Source: a virus
Strand: one strand, 5' to 3'
Length of the DNA: 39,735 nt
Virus record (IMG/VR): IMGVR_UViG_3300045141_000180
Span: 1 to 39,735 of that record
Position numbers and translations under genes: made by a program. The notes under the pieces are model-generated. The model did not search any database and had not been told where the DNA came from. It saw only the letters and a list, made by a program, of their open reading frames with translations. Shown here piece after piece: positions 2,833 through 39,735 of the stretch. Numbering within the stretch: position 1 is the first letter of the stretch; the number at the start of each line of letters is the position of its first letter.

Positions 2833-3681
2833 TCAACCGATTTCTTCCATCACCTGCTGTTCGCCCTCAGCAAGCGCGGCGGCGACCAGACGTTCCTCTT
2901 CGGTGTGGATGCGGTCCTCGAGCTCTTTCAGCCAGCGCTCGGCTTCCTCTTCGCTGCTGTCCCGACCTGGCGGCGACGGGACCTCGACCCCCAGCTCGCG
3001 CGCCTTCGGAGCCAACTGCTCATACCGCGCCCGCATCTGCGAGCGCGTGCGCCGTGGCGTGGCCGCCGGCTGTGGAGGCAGCGCCGCCACCTCCACCGTT
3101 TCCGATGGGAAGATGCGATCGTATTCCGCGGCGTTGGTCGCGATGCGCTCCGGGTTGTTCCGCTCCTCGATCACGATCCCCGCGTCGTCTTCGTCCGGCA
3201 CGTCCTGGCCGAACGCCATCCGCGACGCCCGAGCGATGGCGCGTTTTTCAGCCATCTCCTGGGGATGAGCTTTCGCCACCGGCTGACGGGAGAACTCCTC
3301 TGGCATCACCTTGCCGCGAGCGGTGATCTCTCCCCAGTCGCGCGTCTGGATGGTGCACTCGACGACGACCTCCTCGGCCCGATACCCCCAGAGCATCTTC
3401 TCGTCTGGGGGCAGTGGCCGGGTCCGGTAGCCGCGGTACTGCGGGTGGCGCCGCATCAATCTGACCCGGCCGTCGATGGTGAACCACGGCCGGCCCTGGT
3501 ACAGGGTGATATCGACCGCGGGATCGACGTCGTAGTGCTGCGCGAGCAGAAACACCATATTGATCTGCTCGACGGTTGCCGACTCGAGCCCGTAGCCCTT
3601 GGTCTTCTGGGCTGCGTCCAGCCGGGTGCGAATTTGCGTATCAGAGAACTCGCGCCGTGCCAGCACTTGCGTTTCAGCCAT
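2833..3681 (-). CDS. RecT-like single-strand annealing protein candidate
   Basis: A 282-residue protein. A central core resembles RecT-type annealing proteins: ITLYQGRPWFTIDGRVRL at about residues 60-75, a WGYRAEEVVVECTI strand region, and a helix PQEMAEKRAIARASRMAF near 145-160. After about residue 175 it becomes acidic and coiled-coil-like, ending with long charged helices. Annealing proteins pair complementary single strands during phage recombination and replication. The neighbouring VRR-NUC nuclease is the expected partner. ATG 3681 is preferred because GGAAGG lies nine bases upstream. A TTG at 3687 is possible. The assignment is by pattern, not by search. Confidence 0.5.
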   Translation of the reverse strand: MAETQVLARREFSDTQIRTRLDAAQKTKGYGLESATVEQINMVFLLAQHYDVDPAVDITLYQGRPWFTIDGRVRLMRRHPQYRGYRTRPLPPDEKMLWGYRAEEVVVECTIQTRDWGEITARGKVMPEEFSRQPVAKAHPQEMAEKRAIARASRMAFGQDVPDEDDAGIVIEERNNPERIATNAAEYDRIFPSETVEVAALPPQPAATPRRTRSQMRARYEQLAPKARELGVEVPSPPGRDSSEEEAERWLKELEDRIHTEEERLVAAALAEGEQQVMEEIG

Positions 3682-3687
3682 GAGCAA

Positions 3688-3942
3688 CTACCTTCCGATC
3701 AAAGACTCGGCGGCTCGCATCCCCATCCAGAACACGAACCCGCCGGCGAATAAGACGACGCTGACGCTGACGCCGAGCCCGAGCATCAGCACCGCGACCA
3801 GCGCGCGGTCGGTCCAGGTCTGCTTGCGATAGCGCGACTGCTGGAGCTGCCAGGTGCTGACCACATGACCAGTCCGAATGGCTTGCACGCTGATGCGACC
3901 GTTCCGATGCACCGGGATCTCTTCCACTTCCTCGGCGCTCAT
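3688..3942 (-). CDS. Small single-span membrane protein
   Basis: An 84-residue protein. A soluble basic N-terminal part is followed by a long hydrophobic stretch at about residues 47-72 (LVAVLMLGLGVSVSVVLFAGGFVFW). ATG 3942 overlaps the stop of the methyltransferase gene by ATGA. The function is not recognised. An early-operon membrane protein might act in superinfection exclusion, but nothing in the sequence shows this. Confidence 0.6.
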   Translation of the reverse strand: MSAEEVEEIPVHRNGRISVQAIRTGHVVSTWQLQQSRYRKQTWTDRALVAVLMLGLGVSVSVVLFAGGFVFWMGMRAAESLIGR

Positions 3943-5486
3943 GCCTGGTCCACTGCCATCAGCCGATGCCCTATGAACTCCGCCACGGGCGCCACCACCC
4001 CGTTCCCGATCATTCTGTACTGGTGCGAATCTGGTATCTGCTTGCCGTCAGCAGTGAAACGAACCCAGTCATCAGGCCAGCCCTGGAGCCGCTCGCACTC
4101 CAGCGGCGTAAGGCGACGCACGCCCATGCCCGCCTGGCAGACGGCATGTGCTCGCACGCTGATCAAGGATGGGACGCCATCCTCGACGATCTTGAGGCTC
4201 GACTTGGCTGCATCGCCCGAGGCGTCCTTGTCAAAGCCGAACGGCAGCAGATTGTCTCCGCCGTCGCCCCGCGCTCCACTCCATCCGTGGTGTCCATCGC
4301 CTGCACGCAGCGAGTTGGCGACCACGAACGTTTCCGACTCCATGTCCATGCGATAGCCGCTCGCCCGCGCGACAAGCGGGCGAGCGGCTCCCTCGTCGAT
4401 CGTCGACCCCACGATCAGGTTCTCGTCGTCCTCGTGGTGCCGCCCAGGCATGTTGCTGTCCGGGTGACCGCCGGCGCTCAGCGTGGCGGCGACGAAGTCG
4501 GACCGCTGTAGTCCTGCGCCACGCAACGTGTGATACGTATCCGTATCGGCCTGCTGGTTACGATCGTCCCAGGCGACGTAGTTGTGGGCGTCACCCTGGA
4601 GCGCGAAGCTGGTGCCGTCCTCGGACACGTTCGGCTCACCCTGGCCATTGCTCACGGCGATCATCGGGAGCTCGACGCTAGCCCTTCGAGCGCCGTCATC
4701 AAGCGTGGGGGCAACGTCTTCCCCCGCTTCGCCGCCCGTCGCAGAATGCCCGCCGCAGCTTTCGCAGACAGCCAGTACTTGCGCGGCACGGCGCGCGTCT
4801 CCAAGACAGCCGACAATGAAGACACGGCGACGACGCTGGGGGACTCCGAACCATCGCGCGTCCAGAATTCGGTAGGCCCACCCATACCCGAGCTTTTCCA
4901 CGCTGTCGACGATGTGCGCGAAGTCACGGCCCGTATGCGAGCTCCGTAACTCGGCCCCCGCCAGGCACTCAGCGCAGTTGCAAGGTCCTCCTCGCCGTAG
5001 TCGCTTCCGTGCCGCGACATGCTCCGCTGCCCACTCGCGGGTGAGGTTGCAGGCAGCGCAAGAGCAGATGCTAAGCAGTCCGGGAACATTCTCAATGCAC
5101 CACCACCGTGGCCGCACGATGGACAGGATCCGGTGGAACTCAAACCACAGACCGCTGCGCTCCGCGGATAGACCACCCCGTTTTCCGGCCACGCTGACGT
5201 CCTGGCACGGGAACCCTCCGTAGACGAGGTCAATATCGCCGGGTAGCCCTGACCCGGCTTCCCACCGCCGCCCGTCGAGCTGTAGGTGTAGTCCGTCAGC
5301 CGCACCTCCGCTCGCTGGTTCTCCGACACGGCGAACGTCTGTGATTCGCTCACAGTCGGGCCAGTGCCGCTCGAGCACGCTCAGGCACCACGGGTCCTGC
5401 TCCACCTGCAGCACCGTCTCGATGCCGGCTCGCTGGAAGCCGAGCTCGAACCCGCCGACACCAGAGAACAACGAGACGGCTTTCAT
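3939..5486 (-). CDS. C5-cytosine DNA methyltransferase
   Basis: A 515-residue enzyme that transfers a methyl group from S-adenosylmethionine to C5 of cytosine. Motif I FSGVGGFELGF is at residues 7-17, motif IV GFPCQDVS has catalytic Cys94, motif VI is ENV at 132-134, motif VIII is QRRRRVFIVG at 217-226, and motif X (YRMIGNGVVAP) lies near the C-terminus. A Cys-rich insertion (CSCAAC, later CNCAEC, about 141-174) between motifs VI and VIII could bind zinc. The target-recognition region is long, about 230-440. The start is ATG 5486, overlapping the upstream stop by ATGA. No restriction enzyme is adjacent, so it is probably a protective orphan methylase. Confidence 0.92.
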   Translation of the reverse strand: MKAVSLFSGVGGFELGFQRAGIETVLQVEQDPWCLSVLERHWPDCERITDVRRVGEPASGGAADGLHLQLDGRRWEAGSGLPGDIDLVYGGFPCQDVSVAGKRGGLSAERSGLWFEFHRILSIVRPRWWCIENVPGLLSICSCAACNLTREWAAEHVAARKRLRRGGPCNCAECLAGAELRSSHTGRDFAHIVDSVEKLGYGWAYRILDARWFGVPQRRRRVFIVGCLGDARRAAQVLAVCESCGGHSATGGEAGEDVAPTLDDGARRASVELPMIAVSNGQGEPNVSEDGTSFALQGDAHNYVAWDDRNQQADTDTYHTLRGAGLQRSDFVAATLSAGGHPDSNMPGRHHEDDENLIVGSTIDEGAARPLVARASGYRMDMESETFVVANSLRAGDGHHGWSGARGDGGDNLLPFGFDKDASGDAAKSSLKIVEDGVPSLISVRAHAVCQAGMGVRRLTPLECERLQGWPDDWVRFTADGKQIPDSHQYRMIGNGVVAPVAEFIGHRLMAVDQA

Positions 5487-5878
5487 GCACACATCCACCA
5501 GGTCGACCACTCCCGGCCGCGGCCCTGACCGATCATCCAGCGAGTGGCTTCCCTGCTCGCGACGGGATCAAACCGCGAGTAGCCGGCTCGACCCTGCGGC
5601 GTGGTCATCCAGGTCGACAGCAAGAACTGAAAGAGCCCGCTGGCTCCTGAGCGCGGATTGACCGCGGTGGACACGTTCCTCGACTCGGCCCACGACAGAC
5701 AGTCCATCACCCGGTCCACCCAGTCGCGCGGTGCTGGCTCAGGAGCGACTTCTGCCTCAGGCACGGCGTCTGGTGCGTCCTCGACGGCTGGCATGGCTAC
5801 CGCGGCGGCTGGAGCGACCCCTGCACCATCCACGCTCGCCACCGTCACCAGCATCGCCAGAGCAGTCAGCGTGGCCAT
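5483..5878 (-). CDS. Secreted lysozyme / transglycosylase-like (Rpf-like) protein
   Basis: A 131-residue protein with a hydrophobic N-terminus (about 1-30), an Ala/Pro/Glu-rich linker and a C-terminal domain at about 50-131. That domain has the hallmark of Rpf and SLT lysozyme-fold enzymes: CLSWAESRN with Glu65 as the likely catalytic acid, then NPRSGASGLFQF at 74-85 and STW. These enzymes cleave the glycan strand of peptidoglycan. Its start overlaps the preceding stop (TAATG). It lies in the early operon, far from the lysis genes, so a wall-remodelling or lysogen-expressed role is possible. Confidence 0.7.
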   Translation of the reverse strand: MATLTALAMLVTVASVDGAGVAPAAAVAMPAVEDAPDAVPEAEVAPEPAPRDWVDRVMDCLSWAESRNVSTAVNPRSGASGLFQFLLSTWMTTPQGRAGYSRFDPVASREATRWMIGQGRGREWSTWWMCA

Positions 5879-8981: not shown

Positions 8982-9500
8982 GTGATCGTTGCATATGCCG
9001 ATCCGCCCTATCCTGGTCACGCCGACCTGTACAAACGTCATCCGGATTACGCCGGCGAGGTCGACCACGCGGAGCTCATCGCTCGTCTGTGTGCTGAGTA
9101 CCCCGATGGTTGGGCACTGAGCACTGCCAGCACCACACTGCAGCAGGTTCTCGCGCTCTGCCCGGCCGACGTGCGGATCGGCGCCTGGGTCAAACCCTTC
9201 GGCGTGTTCAAGCCAGCGGTGAATCCCGCCTATGTGTGGGAGCCGGTCATCTTCCGCGGCGGACGACGGCGCACTGATCGCTCGGAGGAAACCGTGCGCG
9301 ACTGGTGCTCGGTCCCGATCACGCTCCAGCGCGGGCTGGTCGGAGCGAAGCCCGAAGGCGTCTGCTTCTGGGTGTTCTCCATGCTCGGACTTCAACCCGG
9401 TGACGAACTGGTCGATCTGTTCCCTGGAACCGGCGCGGTCAGCCGAGCTTGGGAACGCTGGCAGCACCAGCTGCTACCAGCTTATGCCGTGAGTTTGTAA
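8982..9500 (+). CDS. DPPY-type DNA methyltransferase (N6-adenine or N4-cytosine)
   Basis: A 172-residue protein from GTG 8982. The catalytic motif IV DPPY is at residues 7-10 (YADPPYPG), and the AdoMet-binding motif I FPGTG is near the C-terminus (ELVDLFPGTGAV). This order, IV before I, is the circularly permuted arrangement of N4/N6 amino-methyltransferases. A WALSTAS segment and GAKPEG precede motif I. The upstream in-frame GTG/ATG region would overlap the DpdA-like gene, so 8982 is preferred. Its 3' end overlaps the convergent serine recombinase by 19 bases. Likely role: protective methylation. Confidence 0.8.
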   Translation: MIVAYADPPYPGHADLYKRHPDYAGEVDHAELIARLCAEYPDGWALSTASTTLQQVLALCPADVRIGAWVKPFGVFKPAVNPAYVWEPVIFRGGRRRTDRSEETVRDWCSVPITLQRGLVGAKPEGVCFWVFSMLGLQPGDELVDLFPGTGAVSRAWERWQHQLLPAYAVSL

Positions 9501-11266
9501 ACCGCCGTAGCCGAGCAAAAGGACACGGCAATTACCAAATCCCGAGTGGTCAGTTTGAGCTCCACGCTCGGCAGGTTGTTCTCGTCCACCACTACTCGGC
9601 GCACCAGACCGCGCACGATCTCCGACCACTCGTCATCGCTCAGCGACTCGAGCGGCACACTCCGCAGCTTCTCGGCGAGCTCGGTCGCGCCTTCGACGTC
9701 GAAGTTGCGCGCCTCGCGCTCGGCCTCGTCGATCGCCTTCTCCAATTCGCTGATGCGGGTCCTGGTCTGCTCCTGCTCCTGCACGATGCGCTGGCTCGCG
9801 ATCTCGTGCCCCTGAGCAGACATCTTCCCGCGCATCCTGAACAGGTCGGCCTCGTCGACCGCCAACTCGTCGGCGCGTTCCTGCAGGTGCCGCAGTTCCG
9901 CGAGCATGACCGATGGCGTCTCCGCCGTATCGGCCGCCTGTCTGGCGTAGCGCTCCGCGGCGGCCTCGATGTCCTCTGCCAGGTTCTGCCGCTTGAGCAG
10001 CGCCAGCACGCCCTCGTAGACGTCCCTGGTGCGTAGCAGTGCTGGCGTCCGGCACTTGTGTTTTCCGATGTCCTGGGCTCGCTCAGCCTGCAAGCCCATG
10101 CCGTTCGAGCGCAGGCAGCGCAGGTACAGGTGCGGCACCGGATACGGGCGTTTTTCGCCTGAGCGAGCGATGTACATCGAGTGCGCCTGCATGGCCATCA
10201 TGCCCTTGCAGACGCCGCAGTAGACCTTGTTTCGCAGCGGGTGAGCGTGGATAGCTGGCCGGCCCGAGCCGCCTGTCCCGCCGGTACGGCGCGAGTCAAT
10301 GGCCGCGCGGACCGCGGCGAAGGATGGGCGCTCGTCCATCTCGCAGCCTTCGCACTCGGCGCGCTCGGTGTCGGTCTTGTGCAGCACCGGCGGGACCTGA
10401 ATGATCAGGGTGTCCTCTTCGTCCTTCCATGTTCGATGCCGAATCACGATCGTCGTCTCGGGGTCGCGCTGTTTGACGTAGTGGGCGCGCGAGTAGGGCA
10501 ACTCACCGACCAGAGCGCGGTGCCCGAGGTTATTAGTGATCCGCTCAGCACTCCAGGCGTCTTCGTGCTTCTTATGGGTGTTGGCCGGCGGCGCCACGGC
10601 GCGCATCCATCGCGCCAGGTCGCGCGTCGGCTCACCGGCGGCGTAGCGTCGCGCCAGCTCGGCGATGATGGCTACCCGCTCGGGGATCAGGATGCCGTGG
10701 TTGTCGGGGTCGCGGCCGAGCCAGTACGGCAGCGTCCCTGCCATGAGCTCGTTTCGTTTGGCCCTGGTCAGCCGTCCGTTGGTGGTGCGGACGGTGATGC
10801 CTTCGTACTCGTGCCGGTTGGTGAATGCGCTGATGGCCAGGAATGACGGGTCGAAATGGTCGGTGGCCGAGGCGATCTGGATCTTCCGCATATCCATCAG
10901 CATCTGCTCGAGCGGTCCGCCCGCTGACATGCTTCTCATGGGCCGGTCGGAGCGGAAGACCACCAGCACGTCGTACTTGCCTTCGTAGCCCCACTTGAGG
11001 ATCTGGCGATAGCTGGGGCGGTGTGGCGTCATGCCGTCGATGCCGAGGTCCCAGGCGTCGCCGACGTGGACCCAGCCGCGGCCGTTGATCAGTTTGACGT
11101 TCTCGGTGTCTTGTGTTTCCAGCGAGGCGTCACCTTCGCCCTCGTCGCCGCTCTTGCTGCGGCGTCGGTAGGTCATGGCTCGCAGCGTGCCGGCTGGCAC
11201 GGTCACGTCGAACAACTGGTAGCCGTGCTGGTTGACGGCTCCCGAGCCCTTGACGCCTCTAGGCAT
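9482..11266 (-). CDS. int: Large serine recombinase (integrase)
   Basis: A 594-residue site-specific recombinase. The resolvase-like N-terminal domain starts near residue 30. YRRRS carries the likely catalytic Ser37, with ASLETQ shortly after and a DRPMR segment matching the conserved DR-x-x-R region. A recombinase domain follows (about 190-330), then a zinc-ribbon region (YCGVCKG and downstream Cys/His, about 350-410), and a long coiled coil (about 440-530) typical of large serine integrases. ATG 11266 is embedded in the end of a tiny leader frame. Such enzymes integrate phages by attP x attB without host factors. The gene lies downstream of the second XRE gene on the same strand. Confidence 0.9.
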   Translation of the reverse strand: MPRGVKGSGAVNQHGYQLFDVTVPAGTLRAMTYRRRSKSGDEGEGDASLETQDTENVKLINGRGWVHVGDAWDLGIDGMTPHRPSYRQILKWGYEGKYDVLVVFRSDRPMRSMSAGGPLEQMLMDMRKIQIASATDHFDPSFLAISAFTNRHEYEGITVRTTNGRLTRAKRNELMAGTLPYWLGRDPDNHGILIPERVAIIAELARRYAAGEPTRDLARWMRAVAPPANTHKKHEDAWSAERITNNLGHRALVGELPYSRAHYVKQRDPETTIVIRHRTWKDEEDTLIIQVPPVLHKTDTERAECEGCEMDERPSFAAVRAAIDSRRTGGTGGSGRPAIHAHPLRNKVYCGVCKGMMAMQAHSMYIARSGEKRPYPVPHLYLRCLRSNGMGLQAERAQDIGKHKCRTPALLRTRDVYEGVLALLKRQNLAEDIEAAAERYARQAADTAETPSVMLAELRHLQERADELAVDEADLFRMRGKMSAQGHEIASQRIVQEQEQTRTRISELEKAIDEAEREARNFDVEGATELAEKLRSVPLESLSDDEWSEIVRGLVRRVVVDENNLPSVELKLTTRDLVIAVSFCSATAVYKLTA

Positions 11267-23634: not shown

Positions 23635-24236
23635 GTTCGACTCCTCCGTCTGGACTCGTCGATCGGATCTTTGCCAGTGCCCTCGATGGTGGTCGCCTTC
23701 GCACCTTCAGCACCGAGCTTTCTCTGCAAGTTTTCCAGAGACTCGTCCGTCTCTATACCGCGAAGTAGTGACGGCTCCGGTTCGTCGCGGTACTTCACGT
23801 CGACCACTCGGACCACGCCGCCATGCGAGCGGATGTCCTTGATGGTCGCCTCGAGTTGCTCGGTCGTTTGCGTGTCGATGGTCTCGGTATCGATCAACGT
23901 GCCCAGGGTCGGGTCCTTGGTATCCGCCTTGCGAATCGCGTTGATCAGCTTGGCTCGCTTGCGCTGCTCGGCGATGACCTCAGGTCGGACCAGCTTCTCC
24001 CACTCTTCCACTTCCGACATCGTTTCGCCGCGAGCCGCCACGTCAGTCAGCAGGTGAAAACCGAGGTCGGAGTAGAGGGCTCGGTTCTGCGGGTCCGACT
24101 GGAGCTGGACGATGTCCCCGTTTGGGGTTGCGAACCATCTCAAAGGATAGTTGTAATTCTGGCCACGCTTGAGCGGGATGTCAGTCCGCCCAAGCGTCTT
24201 TTCGACCATGCGGTCGATGAACGTTTCAGTTGCCAT
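23631..24236 (-). CDS. Hypothetical head-region protein
   Basis: A 201-residue protein following the capsid gene by 19 bases. The N-terminus contains LKRGQNYNYPLRWFATPNGDIVQLQSD, the middle is a charged helix (EVEEWEKLVRPEVIAEQRKRAKLINAIRKA), and the C-terminus is basic. Position suggests a head-completion or decoration protein. No Shine-Dalgarno site is evident, so it may depend on read-through from the capsid gene. Confidence 0.45.
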   Translation of the reverse strand: MATETFIDRMVEKTLGRTDIPLKRGQNYNYPLRWFATPNGDIVQLQSDPQNRALYSDLGFHLLTDVAARGETMSEVEEWEKLVRPEVIAEQRKRAKLINAIRKADTKDPTLGTLIDTETIDTQTTEQLEATIKDIRSHGGVVRVVDVKYRDEPEPSLLRGIETDESLENLQRKLGAEGAKATTIEGTGKDPIDESRRRSRT

Positions 24237-37372: not shown

Positions 37373-37605
37373 GCCGTGCCTCGCCTAGCCAGACCCCGCC
37401 CCGCCAGACCATGCCCGGCCCTACCGCGCATCGCCCCGCCGTACCGTGACCAACCTAGCCTTGTCATGCCCGTCCAGACCTGACCTGACCTAGCCTAGCC
37501 GCGCCGAGCCCTGCTCGACCTTGCCATGCCGCGCCCCACCGCGCATCGCCGAGCATCACCGCACCCCGCCCTGCCAGACCAAACCTCGCCCTGCCACATC
37601 AAGTC
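37371..37605. repeat. Degenerate pentanucleotide array 1 (NNRCC x 47)
   Basis: The whole gap between prim-pol and the winged-helix-like gene is 47 consecutive 5-base units with no insertion or deletion. Positions 4-5 are CC in 39 of 47 units. Position 3 is G in 31, A in 15 and T in 1. Positions 1-2 vary. On the transcribed (minus) strand this reads GGYNN, that is GG every five bases, which could form two-layer quadruplexes. The first unit touches the prim-pol start codon, so the array also supplies its ribosome-binding region. Not coding, because the period is not a multiple of three. Confidence 0.9.
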
Positions 37606-38085
37606 TTAGAGTTTCCCGTCAGCGCGAAGCACGGACTCGATGCGCTGAATCCGTTGCTCGTGCGCCATCGTGATGCTGGCCAACGCCATGTTGATCCGGT
37701 TCTGACGATCGAAGAACTCGAGTTCCGCTGGCTGCAGGTTGGCCAGATCGGTCGATCTGGCCACTTCAAGCATCCGTGTCATCTGTCGGCGTGCTCGGTG
37801 CTTGTGGTCGTCCGCCACGTGAATATGCTCGTTGGCGTCGATCACCCGATAGCCTATCTTCGGAACCGCGACCAGCCAACGGAGGCGTAGGTTTCCCAAC
37901 TCACGCCTGGCCCGGTAGATCGGACTGCGGTGTAACTCGAACCGCCGACCCAGCACCGTCGTCAACTCTTCGTACGTGACGACCCTTCCATAGTCCGCAT
38001 CATCGAGCAGTTCGTCATAAATCTTGCGCCACTCCGGCTTATCGTCGAGCGGCTGGAACGCTTTGGCCACGTCCATTGCTCCCAT
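37606..38085 (-). CDS. Winged-helix-like DNA-binding protein candidate
   Basis: A 159-residue protein from ATG 38085 (or 38076, just after GGGAG). Residues 15-75 (WRKIYDELLDDADYGRVVTYEELTTVLGR, then RSPIYRARREL, then a VAVPKIGYRVI strand) read as a winged helix with two wing strands. After it come HIHVADDHKHRARRQM and long C-terminal helices. It could bind the adjacent repeat arrays, but this is only an inference from closeness. It overlaps the 3' end of the preceding gene by 47 bases. Confidence 0.6.
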   Translation of the reverse strand: MGAMDVAKAFQPLDDKPEWRKIYDELLDDADYGRVVTYEELTTVLGRRFELHRSPIYRARRELGNLRLRWLVAVPKIGYRVIDANEHIHVADDHKHRARRQMTRMLEVARSTDLANLQPAELEFFDRQNRINMALASITMAHEQRIQRIESVLRADGKL

Positions 38086-38677
38086 GCAAGACTTCTGCAC
38101 GTGTCGCGTTGGCAACGACCACCGCGGCGAAGCGTCCATACCCAATCGCGCGCGCGTCACCCAATCCGATACGCCCCGCGCGCTCCGCCACATTGGTCAA
38201 CTCGTCGAGGTTCCAGATTGCTTCGTCCATCTCAGCATCGAACTCGAGTCGCCAGCGCCGGAAGATCGGGCGCATTCGCATGACGCGCTGTCGCATCACC
38301 ACCACCGGCAGGCGCGAGCGGAACTCAGGTCGCGCATACAACTCGTCGAGCGCCCGCGGACCGTCGTACTCCAGTGGAATGCGGTCAGTGCCGATGGCGA
38401 TGCCCTGGCGTACCGCCTTGCCCTTCTTGATGGCCGTGCCGGCGTCCACGAGGCATCGGATGACGCTCGCGGCAGGCATGTAGATACCGATGTCCTGGGC
38501 GTGGTAGAGACCACCGAACCACTCGAGCCGGTCGCGTTCCGCCTCGTCGGCCTCCGTTTTCTTCCGTTTCGCGTTGATGACCGCGATCTCGCGGGAAATG
38601 TCGTCCGTTTTATCGATGAGTCGTGGATTGTGCTGCAGTAAGCCGGTTGTGCCGTCAAAGGCAAAAGCTAATTGCAC
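38039..38677 (-). CDS. Conserved-type phage protein with RAMP-like glycine-rich tail
   Basis: A 212-residue protein from GTG 38677 with AAGGAG upstream. Hallmarks are GLLQHNPRLID at about 12-22, KRKKTEAD, EWFGGLYHAQD at about 52-62, MRMRPIFRRWRLEF at about 132-145, and a C-terminal GRIGLGDARAIGYGRF at about 168-183. The last motif resembles the glycine-rich loop of RAMP-type (Cas5/6/7-like) ferredoxin folds. Similar proteins occur in many actinophages without known function, from memory. It is the first gene after pentanucleotide array 2. Nucleic-acid binding is a guess. Confidence 0.55.
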   Translation of the reverse strand: MQLAFAFDGTTGLLQHNPRLIDKTDDISREIAVINAKRKKTEADEAERDRLEWFGGLYHAQDIGIYMPAASVIRCLVDAGTAIKKGKAVRQGIAIGTDRIPLEYDGPRALDELYARPEFRSRLPVVVMRQRVMRMRPIFRRWRLEFDAEMDEAIWNLDELTNVAERAGRIGLGDARAIGYGRFAAVVVANATRAEVLHGSNGRGQSVPAARR

Positions 38678-38714
38678 AGTTCTGACTCTCCTTTCCCAAA
38701 GTGTTGTGATCTCC

Positions 38715-38924
38715 TCGCCTTGCCGGACCGTGCCAGGCCAGACCGTGCCAAGACCCGCCAGAACTCACCTCGCCTAGCCATGCCAGACCCCGCCGAGCCG
38801 GACCGAGCAATGCCGTGCCAGGCCCTGACCAGCCGGGCTAGACCCCGCCCAACCGCGCCATGCCACGCCGTTCCTCAGCTCGCCTGACCTGGCCCCGCCA
38901 AACCGTGCAACGACCCGCCTTGTC
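38715..38924. repeat. Degenerate pentanucleotide array 2 (NNRCC x 42)
   Basis: Directly after the large terminase stop (38934) come 42 consecutive 5-base units in perfect register. CC stands at positions 4-5 in 33 of 42, and position 3 is G in 30, A in 11 and T in 1. Units such as agacc, ccgcc, tcgcc, tagcc and atgcc are shared with array 1 but in a different order. A 37-base spacer with AAGGAG then leads to GTG 38677. The minus-strand transcript again has GG every five bases. Confidence 0.9.
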
Positions 38925-38933
38925 CACTTCACG

Positions 38934-39735
38934 TCATCGCCGGCTTCCTGCCGCGGCGAACCCGTACCGCGACCGCGCCGGCACCGGGGCCTGCTCGCGT
39001 TCAGCCCCCAGATAGGCCAATCCAAGGGCGATTACACAATCGTCATGCTGTCCGAACGGAGCCGAATATCTGATCATCCCGCTTGGCAGGACGCTTGCTT
39101 CATAGCCCAGCAGCTCCGCTTGCTGGACGGCGTGGTCCAGCAGCGTGAGCGCACCCTGCTCGATCGCCAGCCCGAGCGCCTGCACCAGCGCGGCCTTGCT
39201 GGCATTCGTCGCTTCCCATGCCCACACGGGCAGCGCCGCGCGTGCTCGGCCGAGAAGCCTGGCATAGCCCGTCTGGAGACGTTCGGTGAGCGGACCGCCC
39301 ATGCTGTTGTGCTCCGCAACCACCAGGACGGGGTGGTACAGGTCGCACCATTTGTGCAACCGTTCGGTCTGGAGCTCGTAGTCGATCTCTGAGAACCTGT
39401 CCAGCGCGACCTGCTCCATCAGCGTCGCGTCGATTACGCAGATAGCCGTGAAGTCGTTGGTCCTGCCCCAGTCCACACCGATGACGTACTGGTGACCACG
39501 CTGAGGACCGCGCTGCTCGAGCCGAGACACCGCGTCGACGCCCCTGAACACCCCGCCTCCCTCTAGTTGGAGGAACATCGCGTTATATTCCTGCGACCAG
39601 GCTCGCTCCGGTAGTTCTGCTTTCGCGGCCTCAAGTTCGTCAGTTGCAATGAATGGATTGACGCTGGTCGGCATCTGCCACGATGCCCAATCGGACTGGA
39701 GTGGGTCCTGTCCGTACTGGTACAGGACGTGGAAA
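38934..39735 (-). CDS. terL: Terminase large subunit, C-terminal part (nuclease domain)
   Basis: This completes the gene begun at 597-1; the last 127 bases repeat the left end. The RNase-H-like nuclease that cuts the concatemer begins at VIGVDWG (Asp245 of the full 423-residue protein). A mid-domain acidic residue lies in VLVVAEHNSMGG, and the terminal aspartate pair is in QHDDCVIALGLA (Asp388, Asp389). The C-terminus is basic (ARSRYGFAAAGSRR), often the portal-contact end. The stop is followed within ten bases by pentanucleotide array 2, not by the portal gene as in most phages. Confidence 0.95.
   Translation of the reverse strand, partial: FHVLYQYGQDPLQSDWASWQMPTSVNPFIATDELEAAKAELPERAWSQEYNAMFLQLEGGGVFRGVDAVSRLEQRGPQRGHQYVIGVDWGRTNDFTAICVIDATLMEQVALDRFSEIDYELQTERLHKWCDLYHPVLVVAEHNSMGGPLTERLQTGYARLLGRARAALPVWAWEATNASKAALVQALGLAIEQGALTLLDHAVQQAELLGYEASVLPSGMIRYSAPFGQHDDCVIALGLAYLGAEREQAPVPARSRYGFAAAGSRR
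39609..39735. repeat. Right copy of 127-bp terminal direct repeat
   Basis: Identical to bases 1-127. Removing one copy gives a 39,608-bp circle with an intact terminase gene. Confidence 0.95.

What the first reader, a model, noticed from the sequence alone, without database searches (positions are those of the whole stretch)
38715..38924. Array 2: a second, independently ordered pentanucleotide array right after the terminase gene
The next real intergenic gap upstream holds 42 units with the same consensus and many of the same pentamers in a different order. Two arrays with a shared rule but shuffled units suggest slippage or unit exchange under a common constraint, not one simple duplication. 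Position at the 3' end of terL also makes it a pac-site candidate.
Basis: seen in the sequence. Interest (0 to 1): 0.8.

Follow-up and report, generated by a model that had tools for sequence, protein, structure and literature searches.

The report
Phage VIPR guide-RNA array near terminase
The odd five-letter repeat array is a guide-RNA array of the recently described VIPR system, which lets a phage recognise other phages' DNA by reading two letters out of every three, and its guides appear to be aimed at the DNA-packaging and head-region genes of sibling soil phages.

Summary
The array is real and far beyond chance: 32 of 42 in-phase RCC units; maximum 13 in 2,000 shuffles. It is neither a slippage product nor a pac site. 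The - strand reads (GGYNN)n. The adjacent gene (38042-38677, -) is a homologue of Vipr (PDB 36pp, profile E=3e-40; predicted Cas7/Csm3 RAMP fold). The next gene belongs to the Vap family of phage SUSP1. The locus is therefore a VIPR (Viral Interference Programmable Repeat) system, described in a 2026 preprint (PMC13142463); arrays 1 and 2 are its vrRNA arrays. Additions here: (1) a scan for the repeat alone found arrays in about 120 phage loci; 87 of 122 loci carry a vipr homologue nearby, always on the GGY strand. (2) The cassette sits between terL and a primase-like gene; close siblings lack it or carry a different Vipr and array there. (3) A 91%-identical sibling has identical Vipr and Vap proteins but a wholly different array 2. 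(4) Decoded with the published 1-nt-skip rule, array 2 guides match terL and a head-region gene of siblings, with skips on wobble positions, beating 250 of 250 shuffles; 0- or 2-nt skips give background. vrRNA expression and function are untested.

The parts
38717..38919 (-). array 2: vrRNA array, 41 GGYNN units in register, upstream of vipr
37373..37595 (-). array 1: vrRNA array, 45 GGYNN units, ends at the start codon of the primase-like gene
38042..38677 (-). vipr gene (212 aa, phrog_4652), RAMP / Cas7-like fold
   Evidence: PDB 36pp E=3e-40, 2.9e-16 alone; model pLDDT 94; Csm3/Cmr4 hits
37609..38085 (-). vap candidate (159 aa, phrog_5926), family of SUSP1 AVU07_agp038
37375..38933 (-). whole VIPR cassette, present or absent between terL and the primase-like gene
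   Evidence: alignment with L162 breaks at these points
38840..38904 (-). guide 1 (units 3-15 of array 2), decodes to the TerL motif FGQHDDTVIA; matches sibling terL at 12 of 13 units
38775..38834 (-). guide 2 (units 17-28), matches sibling orf201 antisense at 10 of 12 units (L234)
38730..38779 (-). guide 3 (units 28-37), weaker match to orf201 sense strand, 8 of 10 units in the window's own copy
39028..39056 (-). window's own terL site resembling the guide 1 target, mismatched at one codon (Cys instead of Thr)
24046..24125 (.). window's own orf201 sites resembling guide 3 and guide 2 targets (24046-24074 on -, 24100-24125 on +), with mismatches

Best explanation
Array 2 (with array 1) is the guide-RNA array of a VIPR system. 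Inferred mechanism, from the published system: the - strand is transcribed; Vipr, a small Cas7-like RAMP protein, binds along the (GGYNN)n RNA; the GGY bases are not read, and the NN dinucleotides pair with DNA in which one base is skipped between dinucleotides (target NNxNNx...). The complex silences the target gene, probably helped by Vap. Here the 41-unit array appears to hold about three tandem guides of 10-13 units without separating tails. They are aimed at terL and at a head-region gene (orf201) of sibling phages, with mismatches to the phage's own alleles. Shown by computation: protein identity, array-vipr linkage, cassette presence/absence, array turnover and the statistics of target matches. 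Inferred: transcription, RNA binding, silencing and benefit in competition.
For: Vipr homology to PDB 36pp 'SUSP1 Vipr protein' and RAMP fold; 87 of 122 array loci have a vipr homologue nearby, 87 of 87 with the array GGY on the sense strand; phages found by Vipr alone have arrays, 6 of 6, and SUSP1's own vrRNAs are recovered by the same detector; Vap family shared with SUSP1 directly and through mycobacteriophages; cassette presence/absence; array 2 replaced between strains while Vipr and Vap proteins are identical; 1-nt-skip target matches in siblings 23 and 20 against shuffle maxima of 17 and 16 in 250, other skips and unrelated phages at background; skip on the wobble position.
Against: No RNA data. 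No 3' tail like that of type II vrRNAs is seen, and both arrays are longer than the 9-16 units published for type II. About a fifth of the units break GGY. Guide matches of the window's own array are imperfect (12/13, 10/12, 8/10). No target found for array 1. L142 was picked with a seed from guide 1, and the TerL motif is conserved, so many siblings match partly.
Confidence: 0.95

Rival explanations
1. pac/cos packaging site or small-terminase binding array at the terL 3' end.
For: Position directly after terL.
Against: Absent in siblings with 89-99% identical TerL; array 2 content replaced wholesale in L125; elsewhere the array follows vipr, not terL.
Confidence: 0.02
2. Functionless microsatellite made by replication slippage or unit exchange.
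For: Tandem pentamers in an intergenic space.
Against: NN positions are near random while GG positions are held; no shared unit runs between or within arrays beyond shuffles; NN runs match sibling genes under one skip rule; linkage to vipr across phages.
Confidence: 0.01
3. A VIPR locus whose arrays are no longer active (decayed guides).
For: About a fifth of units break GGY; imperfect target matches; no tail.
Against: Vipr and Vap carry only synonymous changes between strains (35 and 25 nucleotide differences, 0 aa); array 2 differs wholly between strains, as expected of guides in use.
Confidence: 0.08
4. Part of a + strand coding sequence of low-complexity protein.
For: Mechanical ORFs cross the array; the Donkeykong array was annotated inside gp48.
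Against: Period 5 does not respect codons; L125 has a different number of units; the neighbouring genes lie on the other strand.
Confidence: 0.01

Closest known systems
VIPR (Viral Interference Programmable Repeat), type II of Escherichia phage SUSP1 (PMC13142463; NC_028808)
   Same: Vipr homologue, GGY/NN arrays upstream and downstream of the vipr-vap pair on the same strand, related Vap, 1-nt-skip matches in competing phages with the skip on the wobble position.
   Different: Arrays of 41 and 45 uninterrupted units with no obvious tail, instead of separate 9-16-unit vrRNAs with a structured tail; predicted targets are terL and a head-region gene of sibling phages, not satellites or prophage regulators.
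Class 1 CRISPR-Cas (Csm3 / Cmr4 / Cas7 RAMP backbone)
   Same: Predicted RAMP fold with glycine-rich loop; guide RNA bound along a protein backbone, in the published VIPR model.
   Different: No CRISPR repeats, no spacers, no other cas genes at the locus; guide information is spread over NN pairs.
TIGR-Tas (PMC12045711, abstract only)
   Same: Phage-encoded tandem guide arrays next to an RNA-guided DNA-binding protein.
   Different: Tas proteins were found through a guide-interaction domain of Cas9; here the array is a plain pentamer scaffold next to a RAMP protein. Paper not read in full here.

Membership tests
VIPR | Vipr protein (ancestral RAMP) | tested here: met
   36pp E=3e-40 and 2.9e-16; RAMP fold; invariant glycines G168, G171, G181
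VIPR | Alternating GGY/NN repeats next to vipr on its sense strand | tested here: met
VIPR | Accessory vap gene beside vipr | tested here: met
VIPR | Target recognition by the 1-nt-skip rule | tested here: met
   computational only: scores 23 and 20 against shuffle maxima 17 and 16; skips 0 and 2 at background
VIPR | vrRNA transcribed and bound by Vipr | not testable with these tools
   needs RNA sequencing and pull-down
VIPR type II (SUSP1-like) | Vap related to SUSP1's | tested here: met
   direct tblastn E=5e-4; W_vap to LittleE gp33 2e-11 and LittleE gp33 to SUSP1 7e-7
VIPR type II (SUSP1-like) | Separate vrRNAs of 9-16 units with a structured 3' tail | tested here: not met
   41 and 45 uninterrupted units; array 1 runs into a start codon. 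Membership of type II is therefore not claimed.
CRISPR-Cas | Long direct repeats separated by spacers, with cas genes | tested here: not met
   no such repeats; only pentamers; flanking genes are terL and primase-like
pac site | Conserved with the packaging genes in close relatives | tested here: not met

The most novel reading that the evidence does not exclude
In a clade of about 39-kb soil phages, VIPR is an exchangeable weapon cassette at one site (between terL and a primase-like gene), with at least two different Vipr/Vap sets and tail-less multi-guide arrays that are replaced wholesale between near-identical phages. The guides silence packaging and head-region genes of sibling phages, sparing self through codon differences.
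Probability: 0.5. Interest if true: 0.8.

Novelty: new member of a known kind. Interest (0 to 1): 0.62.

Why it matters
VIPR was described only in 2026 as a possible ancestor of CRISPR. This locus supports its unusual non-contiguous reading rule from independent sequences, extends the predicted targets to terL and a head-region gene of sibling phages, and offers a natural experiment (window versus L125) on how guides change with no known acquisition protein. The repeat pattern alone finds these systems in bulk.

Tried and rejected
pac site, slippage, coding and CRISPR readings (see rivals and membership). Rfam gave nothing on the locus or on 19 related loci. Decoded guide peptides gave no PHROG hits. 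Eight-unit target seeds: a seed straddling guides 1 and 2 gave 7 hits and an array 1 seed 9 hits, none extending; a guide 3 seed gave 6 hits, extending by at most one unit; these serve as negative controls. Array 1 and the 77-unit array of L165 gave no target above background among siblings. Host search by TerL in genome contigs gave one 48%-identical hit in a metagenome-assembled bin; host unknown. No sigma-70-type promoter found near the arrays.

Full report
What the sequence shows. The window is an uncultivated virus record of 39,735 bases with an exact 127-base terminal overlap, so it is probably a circular assembly of about 39.6 kb; 127 looks like an assembler word length rather than a biological repeat (inference). 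Two arrays of NNRCC units on the + strand lie at 37373-37595 (45 units) and 38717-38919 (41 units), with no other in the window. In-phase RCC in array 2 is 32 of 42 against a maximum of 13 in 2,000 dinucleotide-preserving shuffles. The genes around them are on the - strand, where the units read GGYNN. Unit order is unrelated between the two arrays and sharing of NN pairs is at expectation.

From one array to a system. A first hint came from Mycobacterium phage Donkeykong, whose gp48 region is a GCCNN array. All-against-all comparison of ORFs around them gave one dominant family, the homologues of window gene 38042-38677 (phrog_4652, unknown function). After iterative profile search, 87 of 122 loci have it near the array, and in 87 of 87 the array is GGY on the gene's sense strand. 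Some of the other loci end close to the array; how many was not counted.

Identity. A profile of 72 homologues matches one PDB entry, 36pp, 'SUSP1 Vipr protein' (E=3e-40; the window protein alone 2.9e-16). The predicted structure (pLDDT 94) matches Csm3, Cmr4 and Cas7-11 chains (Z about 10-11). The preprint PMC13142463 describes VIPR: a RAMP protein with vrRNAs of GGY/NN repeats that read DNA with a 1-nt skip, mostly in phages, with accessory vap genes. The gene after vipr (37609-38085) is related to the corresponding genes of LittleE, prophiBWHA-1, MakoManhole and Trine and, weakly but consistently, to SUSP1's. Six phages chosen by Vipr homology rather than by repeats all have arrays (the prophiBWHA-1 one is weak), and the detector recovers SUSP1's own vrRNAs with their tails.

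Cassette and turnover. Fifty-one sibling terL loci were fetched. In the window the cassette fills the space between the terL stop and the start of a primase-like gene. L162 (TerL 99% identical) and L163 (96%) have 221 bases there with no Vipr and no array, and L166/L142 has 30 bases. L152/L165 has a strongly diverged Vipr, a ParB-like accessory gene and a 77-unit array at the same place. Among the sibling loci, arrays occur only in those with Vipr. L125, 91% identical in DNA, has no amino-acid change in Vipr (35 nucleotide differences) or Vap (25), against 11 of 246 in the TerL part. Its array 2 shares no unit order with the window's: GG positions are 0.86 and 0.79 identical, NN positions 0.28 and 0.28. 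Array 1 is partly conserved (25 of 40 NN pairs).

Targets. Under the 1-nt-skip rule array 2 matches the window's own terL at 9 of 10 units (39028-39056) and its orf201 at 8 of 10 and 7 of 9 units on opposite strands, all with the skip on the codon wobble position (the terL codon position printed uses a shifted gene end, and the frame was read from the translated peptide instead). A seed search then found sibling terL L142 matching 12 of 13 units; the extra agreement is at the codon where the window has Cys and the siblings Thr. Guide 2 matches sibling orf201 (L234) at 10 of 12. L125's unrelated array 2 has a guide 57 bases upstream in the same gene, matching L184 terL at 10 of 10 and L142 and L152 at 10 of 11, although these loci were not selected with it; its own terL matches only 8 of 11. 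Against all sibling loci the best scores are 23 and 20; none of 250 shuffles of unit order reaches either (maxima 17 and 16). Skips of 0 and 2 score 11-15, and unrelated phage loci score 12-14. Caveats: TerL motifs are conserved, so many siblings match partly; L142 was picked by a seed from guide 1; the window's own guides have no perfect target in hand; array 1 has none.

Verdict. The array is a VIPR guide array (confidence 0.95). That guide 1 is aimed at sibling terL is likely (about 0.8). Expression, complex formation, silencing and fitness effect are inferred from the published system and were not tested. Long arrays without tails depart from the type II pattern, so the type is left open; the preprint also mentions staggered arrays with overlapping vrRNAs, which may be what this is.

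Noticed in passing
L003 1416-1759 (Mycobacterium phage Donkeykong NC_051648): A GCCNN array of about 70 units lies inside the annotated gene 48 ('hypothetical protein'); gp48 is probably a mis-annotated vrRNA array beside a vipr homologue (gp49).
   Followed up: partly
L129 2169-2440 and 3660-3900; L126 2894-3120; L127 3134-3260: In actinophage VIPR loci the sequence after each short array contains a tRNA T-arm-like hairpin (GGTTCGANTCC type, e.g. GGCGG-TTCGAGT-CCGCC in LittleE), a possible vrRNA tail or processing signal; ARAGORN calls only one odd tRNA in L127.
   Followed up: partly
L131 2250-2307 and 3643-3700 (phage wV8): The record already annotates a direct repeat 'DR_4' on both sides of vipr-vap; it lies next to the two vrRNA arrays and may be the shared tail.
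   Followed up: no
L004-L123 arrays, pooled: The pyrimidine of GGY depends on the next base: GGT is used in 31-39% of units before C or T but 16-18% before A or G; cause unknown.
   Followed up: no
L152 1236-3156: A sibling phage carries a different Vipr, a ParB-like accessory protein (phrog_1033) and a 77-unit array with several frame shifts at the same genomic site.
   Followed up: partly
window 9485-11266 (-): Integrase-family protein of 594 aa (phrog_95), so the phage may be temperate; a C-5 cytosine DNA methyltransferase (3942-5510) and a RecT-like protein (2836-3687) are also present.
   Followed up: no
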